From an uncultured Erysipelotrichaceae bacterium (GTDB lineage: Bacteria; Bacillota_I; Bacilli_A; Erysipelotrichales; Erysipelotrichaceae): a stretch of 42,037 nt of DNA. Both the position numbers and the translations under genes were made by a program. Shown in pieces: positions 25,915-29,332 of this stretch. The DNA lies in the NCBI GenBank assembly GCA_944326095.1, contig CALVCO010000008.1, positions 1 to 42,037 of the forward strand, read 5' to 3'. Below the pieces are notes generated by a model, which ran no database searches, was not told where the DNA came from, and saw only the letters and a list, made by a program, of their open reading frames with translations. Position 1 is the first letter of the stretch; every line of letters starts with the position of its first letter.

Positions 25915-26574
25915 TTGGCTGTTGGAATAGGATTTTTCTTTAAAAGTCGATATAAAACATATGATGAAGAATATTTAAATAATAATTTAGCTACTGATGT
26001 TGCCTTAATTAATGCTATAGATGATTTTTATCAAAATAGTACAAATTATAATGCTGAATATATATTGGACAATGATGTATATAAAGTAACAATAATTGAT
26101 AAAAAAATATATGGATCAACTGTAGTATCATCAGCTAGAATAAATCAAGTTTATGCTGGAGATAAAAAGGTTGATGATATTATTGAAATCAAAGAGAATG
26201 TTCGTTTGGATATGCAGGGTGAAACAGTTTTGAAATCTTGTGATTATCTTGATGCTGGATTTGTTGAAGATGATGATCGTATTGTAGTATTAAAGCCATC
26301 TGAATATGCATTAGATATGTATGATTTAGCTTATAAAGAGTTTTCTTATTTACGTTTAAGTGATGGATATGTAGATACTTATGTTGATATGTATCAAACA
26401 ATTATGCCATATGATGAAAATGGAAATACTTATCTTTATTATATGAATCCGGATATAGATATTGCGCTTATTGAAGCTTTTTATGGTCAAAATACCATGG
26501 ATAATCTTGCAGAAGAATTTAATAATGCTGGTAAAGCAATGTATGATAAATTGATTGAGTTATCAATGAATTAA
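25915..26574 (+). CDS. Membrane-anchored hypothetical protein with lost or non-standard start
   Basis: The frame is open from directly after tandem TAG codons at 25867-25872 and encodes an N-terminal anchor (KYKLVFIAFIIFCILAVGIG) before an extracytoplasmic, acidic and Tyr-rich domain (for example DDRIVVLKPSEYALDMYD). No ATG precedes the anchor. The first usable codon is TTG 25915, which has no ribosome site and would cut most of the anchor off. The true 5' end has probably been lost in a rearrangement that joined it to the preceding gene. No domain is recognised. Confidence 0.5.
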   Translation: MAVGIGFFFKSRYKTYDEEYLNNNLATDVALINAIDDFYQNSTNYNAEYILDNDVYKVTIIDKKIYGSTVVSSARINQVYAGDKKVDDIIEIKENVRLDMQGETVLKSCDYLDAGFVEDDDRIVVLKPSEYALDMYDLAYKEFSYLRLSDGYVDTYVDMYQTIMPYDENGNTYLYYMNPDIDIALIEAFYGQNTMDNLAEEFNNAGKAMYDKLIELSMN

Positions 26575-26658
26575 TAATAATCAAGCAAGTACAAAAATAT
26601 ATTTATTATGAGCCAATGATTAGCCTTCTTTGGTTGAATGTTATGATAAAATTATTTT

Positions 26659-26704
26659 AATAGCACGTTTTATCGCTAATATTTAGTCTTAAAAACGTGC
26701 TATT
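26659..26704. repeat. Perfect 13-bp inverted repeat beside the transposase remnant
   Basis: aatagcacgtttt (26659-26671) pairs with aaaacgtgctatt (26692-26704) across a 20-base loop, two bases before the transposase remnant stop. The following plus-strand sequence has few T, so it is a weak terminator at best. It may belong to the decayed insertion element. Confidence 0.5.
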
Positions 26705-26706
26705 TA

Positions 26707-26853
26707 TTAATTTGTTGAATTAAATATAACAGTAGAAATTTTAGCATTTATACTTTCAGCTATACCGCTTGATATTCTTTTTCCTTTATAGTAAGTGAAG
26801 GAATTAGCTATCTCTTTATCCCAATTTCCTAGTGCACTGACGATAAAAAGCAT
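26707..26853 (-). pseudogene. ISL3-type transposase C-terminal remnant
   Basis: A 48-residue minus-strand frame contains LGNWDKEIANSFTYYKGKRI followed by SSGIAESINAKI. This resembles the conserved W-x-x-EI-NSF ... R-(L/I)-S-N-G-x-(I/A)-E-x-x-N block near the C-terminus of ISL3-family transposases. The remaining 350 or more residues are missing, and the frame is bounded by an in-frame TAA at 26854-26856, exactly where the 26854-26898 inverted repeat begins. Confidence 0.65.
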
Positions 26854-26898
26854 TTAACGTTACCGAAATTGGAAAAAAATCAAAATCGGTAACGTTAA
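26854..26898. repeat. Perfect 13-bp inverted repeat upstream of the AAA ATPase gene
   Basis: ttaacgttaccga (26854-26866) pairs with tcggtaacgttaa (26886-26898) across a 19-base spacer. It lies just upstream of a TATAAT (near 26922) that precedes the ATPase gene, so it could be an operator. The word taacgttaaa recurs downstream of the gene near 28211, so it could equally be an element boundary. Confidence 0.6.
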
Positions 26899-26949
26899 AC
26901 GGGTTATTTTGTTATTTTATATGTTATAATATTGCCAGAGGATATTAGC

Positions 26950-28182
26950 ATGAAACTTTATATACGTGAAAATTATTTGAAAAGAATTCGTGGATTTTAC
27001 GATACTACAGATTTGATAAAAGTTTTAACCGGAGTACGCCGTTGTGGTAAATCTTCATTGATGTTAACGATTGCAGATGAATTGCTTGCGAAGGGAGTTT
27101 CTGCTGAAAATATTATCTATCTTGATTTAGATAGAAGAGAATATAGAAAAGTTGTTGATGATGACCAACTTGAACAGTTAATTGAAGAAAAATCTAAAGG
27201 AATCAAAGGTATAAAATATTTATTTATTGATGAAGTACAAAATGTTAGAAATTTTGAATTGGTATTAAATGGATTTAGAATGGAAGATGAGTATTCAATT
27301 TTTATTACAGGATCAAATTCTTATTTGCTTAGTGGAGAATTATCTACTAAATTAACAGGGAGATATGTTGAATTTGAGATTTTTACTTTAAATTTTGAAG
27401 AATATCAAAATATGAAGAAATTCTTTGGAAAACCAATAAATACTAATCCTCTACAGGAGTTAAATTCTTTTATTTTGGAAGGTGGATTTCCTAGAGCTAT
27501 ACAGTTTGATAGTTTAGAAGATAAAAGAAGCTATACTTTAGGAGTTATAAAAGAAATCTTTGAAAAAGATATTAGAAGACGATTAAAGATAAGAGATAGA
27601 GATGCATTTGAAATAGTTAAAAATTTCGTTATTAATAATTATGGATCACTAATAAGTATTAATGGAATAGTAGATGGCTTAAAAAAACATGGAAACTCAA
27701 TAAGTAAAGCTACAGTATCTAGATATATTCAAGCATTGATGGATGCAAAAATAATTTATGAATGTGAAAAATTTGATATGAAATCAAAGAAGATGATAAA
27801 GGGAGAAAAGAAATATTATTTATCAGATTTGAGTTTTTATTATGCATTAAACACAGACAATCAATTTAATTATGGACCAAGTTTAGAAAATATTGTTTAT
27901 CTATATGCAAAGAGTCATAATTATTCCGTAAGTGTTGGAAGAATTGGTAAACTAGAATGTGATTTTATTTTAAGAGACTTAAAGTTGAACTACAGTTATG
28001 TCCAAGTGTCGTATACTATAGCTCTAAGTAAAGCTACAGAGGATAGAGAGTATATACCATTAGAGAAAATTAAAGACAACTATCCAAAATATGTTGTGAC
28101 AACAGATTATATTTTGAAAAAGAGAAATGGAATTGAACATATCAACATAATTGAATTTATGAAAGAGAATAAATTATTTTGA
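26950..28182 (+). CDS. AAA ATPase with DUF4143 domain
   Basis: The 410-residue protein is of the AAA_14/DUF4143 family, widespread in gut anaerobes and of poorly known role. Walker A is GVRRCGKSS (28-36), Walker B YLFIDEVQN, and the sensor region FITGSNSYLLSGEL. The C-terminal DUF4143 part (GKLECDFILRD followed by YVQVSYTI) resembles a PD-(D/E)xK-like core in which the usual ECDF...V-V motif is visible. ATG 26950 follows AGAGG; an in-frame TTG at 26932 overlaps the promoter region and is unlikely. The gene stands alone, bounded by inverted-repeat or taacgttaa sequences on both sides, which suggests transfer as a unit. Confidence 0.88.
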   Translation: MKLYIRENYLKRIRGFYDTTDLIKVLTGVRRCGKSSLMLTIADELLAKGVSAENIIYLDLDRREYRKVVDDDQLEQLIEEKSKGIKGIKYLFIDEVQNVRNFELVLNGFRMEDEYSIFITGSNSYLLSGELSTKLTGRYVEFEIFTLNFEEYQNMKKFFGKPINTNPLQELNSFILEGGFPRAIQFDSLEDKRSYTLGVIKEIFEKDIRRRLKIRDRDAFEIVKNFVINNYGSLISINGIVDGLKKHGNSISKATVSRYIQALMDAKIIYECEKFDMKSKKMIKGEKKYYLSDLSFYYALNTDNQFNYGPSLENIVYLYAKSHNYSVSVGRIGKLECDFILRDLKLNYSYVQVSYTIALSKATEDREYIPLEKIKDNYPKYVVTTDYILKKRNGIEHINIIEFMKENKLF

Positions 28183-28288
28183 TATTTAACAAAAGCAACA
28201 GAATAATAATTAACGTTAAAAGTTACATTTTTTTCATACTAATCTCAATGTAAGTTAATAATTTCGCTTTAGAATTTTGCAAAATGTA

Positions 28289-28317: not shown

Positions 28318-28330
28318 AATAGTGGATTTA

Positions 28331-28397
28331 GGGTTGTAACTTTAATTAGGCAAGGCCTAGACCATCTGTTTTTTTAGTGGATGGTTTGGCCTTTTTT
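28331..28397 (+). promoter_or_regulatory. LicT antiterminator (RAT) and terminator upstream of licT
   Basis: The ribonucleic antiterminator gggttgtaac...ggcaaggcc (28331-28357) overlaps the 5' arm of a terminator aaggcctagaccatc/gatggtttggcctt (28352-28366 with 28380-28393) that ends in six T. Bound LicT would stabilise the RAT and allow read-through into licT itself. Confidence 0.88.
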
Positions 28398-29259: not shown

Positions 29260-29332
29260 GGTTGTAACCATATGGGCAAGGCCGAAATTGATCATAAGCA
29301 TATTTTTTGCTTATGGTCATTTCGGCTTTTTC
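29259..29332 (+). promoter_or_regulatory. Second LicT antiterminator (RAT) and terminator, before the PTS gene
   Basis: The RAT gggttgtaac...ggcaaggcc begins at the last base of the licT stop codon. It overlaps a long terminator stem (gccgaaattgatcataagca from 29281, with gcttatggtcatttcggc ending at 29326) followed by a T run. It gives a second induction checkpoint inside the operon. Confidence 0.9.

What the first reader, a model, noticed from the sequence alone, without database searches (positions are those of the whole stretch)
26707..28220. DUF4143 ATPase as a bounded insertion module
Transposase homology stops exactly at the inverted repeat 26854-26898. The word taacgttaaa occurs at the end of that repeat and again near 28211, after the ATPase. 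The single-gene ATPase may thus move as a unit with palindromic boundaries, or regulate itself through these sites.
Basis: partly seen in the sequence, partly recalled or inferred. Interest (0 to 1): 0.55.

Follow-up and report, generated by a model that had tools for sequence, protein, structure and literature searches.

The report
ATPase cassette with its own address
A very common but unexplained bacterial gene, thought to be an anti-virus defence, turns out to travel as a sharply bounded package together with a 47-letter mirror-image DNA "address" that the protein it encodes appears to read itself.

Summary
The inverted repeat is real: a 47-bp dyad (26853-26899) abutting the promoter of a DUF4143/AAA_14 ATPase (26950-28182), which matches PADLOC candidate defence family PDC-S01. 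Relatives carry a dyad of the same rigid 47-bp geometry but with different arm words. The arm words covary with residues 252-254, at the N-terminus of the ATPase's own wHTH recognition helix (residue 252 vs arm position 8: z 12.7 under a tree-simulated null, top of 354 columns). The -10 box lies at a fixed 23-24 bp beyond the dyad in most relatives that have one. So the ATPase very probably binds its own site and controls itself.

Near-identical ATPases in unrelated contexts share DNA that starts at the first base of the dyad and stops at the stop codon. For the window against its nearest relative this is 26851-28185. The bounded-module idea is therefore largely right, but the right edge is the stop codon, not the word at 28211, which is at most a half-site. 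Gene-less copies of the dyad exist; one genome has two copies of a 75-bp unit. How the cassette moves, the sign of the autoregulation and the defence role are not shown.

The parts
26853..26899 (.). 47-bp cognate dyad: two inverted half-sites with A-rich spacer; left edge of the cassette and putative operator
   Evidence: (model R1, 50.6 bits); left homology edge 26851 vs L246
26853..26866 (+). left arm TTTAACGTTACCGA
26886..26899 (+). right arm TCGGTAACGTTAAA, ending next to the promoter
26925..26930 (+). -10 box TATAAT (preceded by TGn), 25 bp after the dyad; 23-24 bp in most relatives that have a -10
   Evidence: sequence; spacing
26937..26941 (+). probable ribosome-binding site AGAGG
   Evidence: sequence
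26950..28182 (+). AAA_14 + DUF4143 ATPase, 410 aa, PDC-S01; the stop codon is the right edge of the shared unit
27703..27711 (+). codons 252-254 (Ser-Lys-Ala) at the start of the wHTH recognition helix (helix 253-265, 27706-27744); the residues that covary with the arms
28210..28219 (.). TTAACGTTAA: single half-site-like word, probably chance or a degenerate half-site, not a boundary
26707..26841 (-). C-terminal remnant of an ISL3-type transposase left of the cassette; not part of it

Best explanation
The unit 26853-28182 is a self-contained, horizontally spreading single-gene cassette: cognate 47-bp dyad, promoter, and a PDC-S01-type AAA ATPase. The ATPase (Orc/STAND-like AAA domain, wHTH, degenerate PD-(D/E)XK-like DUF4143 domain) binds the two inverted half-sites through its own wHTH, residues 252-254 reading arm positions 8-12. 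Because the dyad abuts the -35 region, binding sets the cassette's own transcription; the exact phasing slightly favours contact with RNA polymerase (auto-activation) over occlusion. Each ATPase reads only its own address, so several can coexist in one genome. Shown: the site, its rigid geometry, the covariation, the promoter spacing and the unit's edges. Inferred: physical binding, autoregulation and its sign, ATP control, coexistence. Not shown: how the unit moves and whether it acts against phages.
For: Site: 47 of 83 upstream regions score >=13 against 1 of 415 shuffles and 0 of 79 stretches 720-900 nt upstream; 60 of the 72 regions scoring >=9 have span exactly 47 when 44-50 was allowed. 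In 40 genomes, 42 of 48 model hits lie just upstream of a subfamily ATPase and 42 of 45 such ATPases have one. Reading by the ATPase: residues 252, 254 and 253 are the top 3 of 407 columns after removing whole-protein distance; best 15-residue window r 0.63 against a permutation maximum of 0.247. Tree-simulated null: MI 1.45 bits against a maximum of 0.67 in 1000. At 60-65% overall identity, arm identity is 0.76 with the same triplet (96 pairs) and 0.16 when all three residues differ (236 pairs). Promoter: the -10 starts 23-24 bp after the site in 35 of the 44 loci that have one, of 55. Edges. Structure: pLDDT 91, recognition helix 253-265; SSO1545 and PABY2304 Z 16.5-16.8, Orc1/Cdc6 Z 13.6.
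Against: No binding or expression data. Leave-one-out prediction of arms by the helix is no better than by the rest of the protein when close relatives are in the pool (0.69 vs 0.67, p 0.26); it wins only with members above 65-70% identity left out (below 65%: 0.58 vs 0.43, p 5e-5). On 11 held-out copies it is 0.54 vs 0.51, random 0.34. In a second, more divergent set only 22 of 43 subfamily ATPases have a model-detectable site. Solo dyads without a cognate ATPase exist, which a pure operator would not predict. In 6 of 19 pairs homology starts inside the unit and in 1 it starts 44 bp left of the dyad. No target-site duplication was seen. Many genomes are MAGs.
Confidence: 0.72

Rival explanations
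1. Pure operator. The dyad is only an autoregulatory site of a frequently transferred gene. The sharp edges merely mark the smallest piece kept by selection after random transfers and rearrangements; solo and downstream dyads are scars of deleted ATPase copies.
For: G004 keeps the dyad plus about 20 ATPase codons and then a deletion. G058 keeps a dyad and an ATPase fragment. G486:C197 keeps dyad, promoter and the ATPase C-terminus. The G045 solo dyad has no cognate ATPase in that genome. Some downstream copies have flanks resembling the upstream ones.
Against: Edges coincide to within a few bases even at 92-98% DNA identity with kilobases of unrelated flank. Two 73/75-identical gene-less 75-bp units occur in one genome.
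Confidence: 0.35
2. Recombinase-less mobile element: the dyad is the recombination end. The ATPase, alone or with host enzymes, directs insertion or excision between dyads; solo dyads are its non-autonomous (MITE/REPIN-like) form.
For: Sharp edges; second dyads in direct orientation right after the stop in 9 of 80 loci; occupied and solo states at the same place in G040 and G045; the 75-bp repeat in G471.
Against: No target duplication. The PD-(D/E)XK lysine position is A, S or C in 44 of 44 relatives, so nuclease activity is doubtful. Most cassettes lack a right-hand dyad. The site's promoter phasing argues for a regulatory role.
Confidence: 0.3
3. RNA element: the repeat is an mRNA stem-loop or terminator.
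For: Covarying pairs.
Against: It lies upstream of the promoter. G-U pairs are rare: 14 GU against 563 Watson-Crick of 648 cells. No Rfam match at gathering scores.
Confidence: 0.02
4. The inverted repeat is the end of the ISL3 insertion sequence next to it.
For: Adjacent ISL3 remnant.
Against: Dyads of this geometry accompany the ATPase in many genomes. The transposase remnant points its 3' end away from the dyad, and what recurs elsewhere is 26658-26705.
Confidence: 0.01

Closest known systems
PDC-S01 (PADLOC candidate single-gene anti-phage defence; DUF4143/AAA_14 ATPases)
   Same: Same protein family: PDLC04787, 441 bits, E 7e-133. A paper describes PDC-S01 as an ATPase domain fused to a PD-(D/E)XK member and as the fourth most common defence across prokaryotes, with experimental validation pending for most PDCs (PMC12988326, passages seen).
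   Different: The cognate dyad, its read-out by the wHTH and the dyad-to-stop cassette are not mentioned in the passages seen.
Archaeal ATPases SSO1545 (2fna) and PABY2304 (2qen)
   Same: Closest solved folds over residues 1-302, Z 16.5 and 16.8.
   Different: Sequence relation is marginal (2fna E 0.25); no cognate DNA site is known to me for them (recalled).
Orc1/Cdc6 initiators and their origin recognition boxes
   Same: AAA domain plus winged helix; inverted boxes beside the protein's own gene (box layout recalled); 2qby Z 13.6.
   Different: No sign of a replication origin; the site is a promoter-phased 47-bp dyad.
STAND transcription regulators such as MalT and IniR
   Same: ATPase that binds DNA near a promoter (MalT recalled; IniR passages in PMC5760070).
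   Different: Different DNA-binding domain and no sensor repeats here; sign and signal unknown.
REPIN/RAYT and MITE systems
   Same: Single gene flanked by palindromes, with gene-less dispersed copies.
   Different: RAYTs are transposases (recalled); here the gene is an ATPase and gene-less copies are few per genome.

Membership tests
PDC-S01 / DUF4143 ATPase family | full-length match to a family profile | tested here: met
   PDLC04787 441 bits; AAA_14 and DUF4143 above gathering scores
PDC-S01 / DUF4143 ATPase family | protects against phage | not testable with these tools
   validation pending for most PDCs per PMC12988326
Active AAA ATPase | Walker A and Walker B residues | tested here: met
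   G28, G33, K34, S35 and D94, E95 present in 44 of 44
Active PD-(D/E)XK nuclease | catalytic lysine of the (E/Q)xK motif (motif recalled) | tested here: not met
   position 354 is A 34, S 9, C 1 in 44 of 44; Q352 and D338 kept
Autoregulatory wHTH DNA-binding protein | recognition helix specific for a site next to its own promoter | tested here: met
   by covariation and fixed -10 spacing; binding itself not tested
Insertion sequence | encodes a transposase | tested here: not met
   the only ORF of the unit is the ATPase; Pfam AAA_14 and DUF4143
Insertion sequence | target-site duplication | tested here: not met
   no exact match longer than 5 nt between flanks in 12 of 12 loci
REPIN/RAYT-like | dispersed gene-less copies of the palindrome | tested here: inconclusive
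   two copies of a 75-bp unit in one genome; solo dyads in others, mostly single
Homing endonuclease | insertion destroys its recognition site | tested here: not met
   occupied loci keep an intact dyad

The most novel reading that the evidence does not exclude
PDC-S01 is a world of recombinase-less selfish cassettes, each an ATPase that reads a private, fast-diversifying 47-bp address. The address is at once operator, left end and landing site; solo addresses are targets and scars, and incompatible addresses keep co-resident copies apart, as in plasmid incompatibility groups. Any defence effect would be competition between cassettes.
Probability: 0.25. Interest if true: 0.93.

Novelty: new variant of a known kind. 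Interest (0 to 1): 0.78.

Why it matters
PDC-S01 ATPases are reported as the fourth most common defence candidate across prokaryotes and the most frequent single locus in a rumen survey, with no validated mechanism (PMC12988326, PMC13356809; passages). A cognate site for each, read by three neighbouring residues, makes the family directly testable: a ready EMSA target, a reporter, a specificity code and a defined transferable unit. It would also show that a gene can spread with base-precise edges without carrying an obvious recombinase.

Tried and rejected
RNA structure: rejected on promoter position and G-U scarcity. ISL3 end: rejected. Right boundary at 28211: rejected. Clean empty site: G004, G001, G045 and G058 examined; none is a naive target with exact junctions. 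The G014:C41 model hit lies in a coding sequence and is taken as false; the G066:C2 hit belongs to the L052 gene at a contig end. Phage and IMG/VR carriers of the close subfamily: best hit only 37% identical. First gapped pattern had a miscounted gap and found nothing; repeated correctly. Alignment A2 was spoilt by L124 and replaced by A3. Full-pool leave-one-out gave no advantage to the helix. Literature: DUF4143 occurs in one held paper, a T. thermophilus expression table; no description of such a site in searches (held open-access library only). Taxonomic scatter: 14 label changes over 11 phylum labels on the tree against a least possible 10 and shuffled mean 19.7, so scattered but clustered; MAG labels are unreliable.

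Rows dropped before counts: L056 and L117 (same contigs as L004 and L007) from the site statistics; L105 and L086 and sites not 47 bp long from the covariation set (57 loci kept); L065 and some other rows from the structure alignment (L065 because of an in-frame stop; 44 rows kept); L124 from model R1 (54 of 55 sites kept); L257 from the held-out set because it is the same contig as L109; L254 and L255 (score under 9) from the held-out prediction (11 of 13 kept).

Full report
What is there. It lies just upstream of the promoter of an ATPase ORF, ATG 26950 to stop 28182. A -10 box TATAAT at 26925-26930 and AGAGG before the ATG put the likely transcript start downstream of the dyad, so the dyad acts as DNA, not RNA. 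The protein matches AAA_14 and DUF4143 and PADLOC PDC-S01 at 441 bits. To the left is a weak ISL3 transposase remnant. To the right is a BglG/LicT-like antiterminator ORF (name from recall; ORF).

Is the dyad more than chance? In the window and the whole genome the arm pair occurs once at up to 3 mismatches. I collected 80 named relatives, 51-74% identical, plus seven from relatives' genomes. With an unbiased span of 44-50 bp, 47 of 83 upstream regions score at least 13, against 1 of 415 shuffles and 0 of 79 stretches further upstream; 60 of the 72 regions scoring at least 9 have a span of exactly 47. The arms differ between relatives but stay complementary (15 of 19 pairs with changes on both sides; 171 double-changed cells against 72.6 in shuffles). 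Sites were chosen partly for symmetry, so searches are the fairer controls.

Specificity. A covariance model (R1) was run over 40 genomes that hold these loci. It gave 48 distinct sites: 42 just upstream of a subfamily ATPase, 3 just downstream of one, 3 solo (my tally from those tables). 42 of 45 subfamily ATPases there have a site; none of the more distant DUF4143 genes does. In a second set of 37 genomes with more divergent ATPases, 22 of 43 have one. Of the 44 sites found there, 22 precede an ATPase, 1 precedes an ATPase cut by a contig end, 4 follow an ATPase, 2 touch ATPase remnants and 15 have no subfamily ATPase next to them (12 of these read, one of them 1.1 kb from an ATPase; 3 weak ones not fetched). 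Four extra copies in the first set that were not used for the model (G064:C41, G072:C40, G076:C123, G097:C26) all have the site.

Who reads it? After removing whole-protein distance, arm distance in 57 loci tracks one stretch of the protein, residues 248-262 (r 0.63; permutation maximum 0.247 of 200). The top three of 407 columns are 252, 254 and 253. The AlphaFold model (pLDDT 91.2) puts these at the N-terminus of helix 253-265, followed by a beta wing: the recognition helix of a winged HTH. The table reads almost like a code: KRE mostly with GGGGGTA, SKA and GKA with CGTTACC, SRQ mostly with CGTTGCA, SEA and SEI mostly with CGTTAGCG, CGTGTGCG or CGTGGGCG, TKP often with ATACC, DRR with CGACCA, RKE with ACCGAACT. 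With a tree built without the wHTH and arm letters simulated on it, residue 252 against arm position 8 has MI 1.45 bits, null maximum 0.67 in 1000 (z 12.7, first of 354 columns), and 253 tracks positions 11-12. At matched overall identity of 60-65%, arm identity is 0.76 for the same triplet (96 pairs) and 0.16 if all three differ (236 pairs). Results against: leave-one-out prediction from the helix beats the rest of the protein only when close pool members are left out (below 65% identity 0.58 vs 0.43, p 5e-5; below 70% 0.62 vs 0.54, p 0.03); with the full pool it does not (0.69 vs 0.67, p 0.26), and on 11 of 13 held-out copies it is 0.54 vs 0.51, random 0.34.

What it does there. Of 55 exact 47-bp sites, 44 are followed by a -10-like box, in 35 of them starting 23 or 24 bp after the site; shuffled spacers have such a box at all in 36% of trials. 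TTG stands at offset 0 or 1 in 42 of 55, so the -35 abuts the right arm and the right half-site is centred near -41.5. That geometry is the basis for autoregulation. The phasing suits contact with RNA polymerase slightly better than simple blocking, but the sign is inferred. The window's own -10 is at 25 bp with a poor -35 and a TGn motif.

Edges of the unit. Among the loci I looked for near-identical ATPases in unrelated contexts. Left ends of DNA homology relative to the dyad start are -2 (L095/L107, 97.7%), -9 (L047/L049), -2 (L060/L063), +1 (L108/L112), +1 (L057/L067), 0 (L090/L095) and 0 (L094/L100). Right ends relative to the stop codon's end, where the contig allows, are +3 (L047/L049), +4 (L060/L063), +9 (L108/L112), +7 (L057/L067), +15 (L090/L095) and +3 (L094/L100). 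Over all pairs at 72% identity or more with at least 600 nt of room, 12 of 19 left ends lie within 12 bp of the dyad start, 6 lie inside the unit, and 1 lies 44 bp to the left; 17 of 18 right ends lie between -30 and +20 of the stop, and one at +77. The pairs fall into about five independent clusters. L078/L085 are co-linear on the left for 2.9 kb, so the method does see vertical flanks. For the window, homology with L246 runs 26851-28185. Against the sister genome G004 the left edge is 26846, and the two genomes share the right flank from 28261 at 98%.

Second and solo dyads. A second dyad in the same orientation follows the stop in 9 of 80 loci: L063 (partial), L076, L077, L083, L096, L097, L099, L114 and L117. 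Eight of these are 29-46 letters of 46-47 identical to the upstream one; L099 (14 of 46) was compared in a register where the upstream match is doubtful. In the rest, downstream half-sites are no commoner than in controls. Solo dyads occur in G045, G027, G077, G079 and G090 and others. At one locus G040 has dyad and ATPase, G045 only the dyad, and G058 a dyad with an ATPase fragment; in G045 the flank matching the sequence after the G040 stop begins directly after the dyad. The G045 dyad is of the GGGGGTA class while that genome's own ATPase has another address, so it looks like a relic. G004 keeps the dyad and about 20 codons. In G471 two gene-less units of 75 bp, 73 of 75 identical, sit in unrelated intergenic places with sharp edges; this is the best hint that the dyad itself can move.

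Generality. In more distant DUF4143 genes (27-41% identical, from relatives' genomes and viral contigs) the best direct repeat upstream has a spacing of 39-41 bp in 19 of 46, against 33 of 460 shuffles and 3 of 92 in-gene stretches. Another DUF4143 gene of the window's own genome has TCCGAAATCGGAAATTT twice, 39 bp apart, next to a TTGACT -35; two others there show no such pair. So a private two-box site may be a habit of much of the family.

Mechanism of movement and defence. Walker residues are invariant, but the PD-(D/E)XK lysine position is A, S or C in 44 of 44 (motif recalled), so a nuclease role is doubtful. I found no target duplication. [quoted passage not shown] PMC13356809 (passages) finds it the most frequent single locus in rumen genomes. 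I did not find the site described in my searches of the held open-access library, which lacks most subscription papers and preprints.

Verdict. The finding is real and better than stated: a bounded cassette with its own address.

Noticed in passing
L268:2437-2511 and L269:2244-2318 (genome G471): Two 75-bp gene-less units, 73 of 75 identical, each holding a 47-bp dyad, in unrelated intergenic places with sharp edges.
   Followed up: partly
L031 upstream of 2013 (G000:C6 upstream of 27512): Another DUF4143 ATPase of the same genome has a palindromic box TCCGAAATCGGAAATTT twice, 39 bp apart, abutting a TTGACT -35.
   Followed up: partly
46 distant DUF4143 loci (among L010-L030 and L193-L236): Upstream direct repeats of private words spaced 39-41 bp in 19 of 46.
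   Followed up: partly
genomes G064, G072, G076, G090, G097, G479: All six genomes seen with two subfamily ATPases whose sites were read carry two different addresses; no null computed.
   Followed up: no
window 28326-28360 and 29260-29290: Similar GGTTGTAA...GGCAAGGC stretches before and after the LicT/BglG-like ORF look like antiterminator targets (recalled motif); 28329-28357 recurs exactly in the sister contig at the second position.
   Followed up: no
plasmid and viral collections: 231 plasmid records (173 Acinetobacter) and 51 IMG/VR loci carry distant DUF4143 relatives.
   Followed up: no
window 26658-26705: Hairpin-like stretch next to the ISL3 remnant recurs at G000:C59 (90%) and G004:C232 (83%), probably the 3' end of that IS.
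   Followed up: no
window 25915-26571: 219-aa ORF (TTG start) with no Pfam match at E 0.001 and no NCBIfam match at E 0.01.
   Followed up: no
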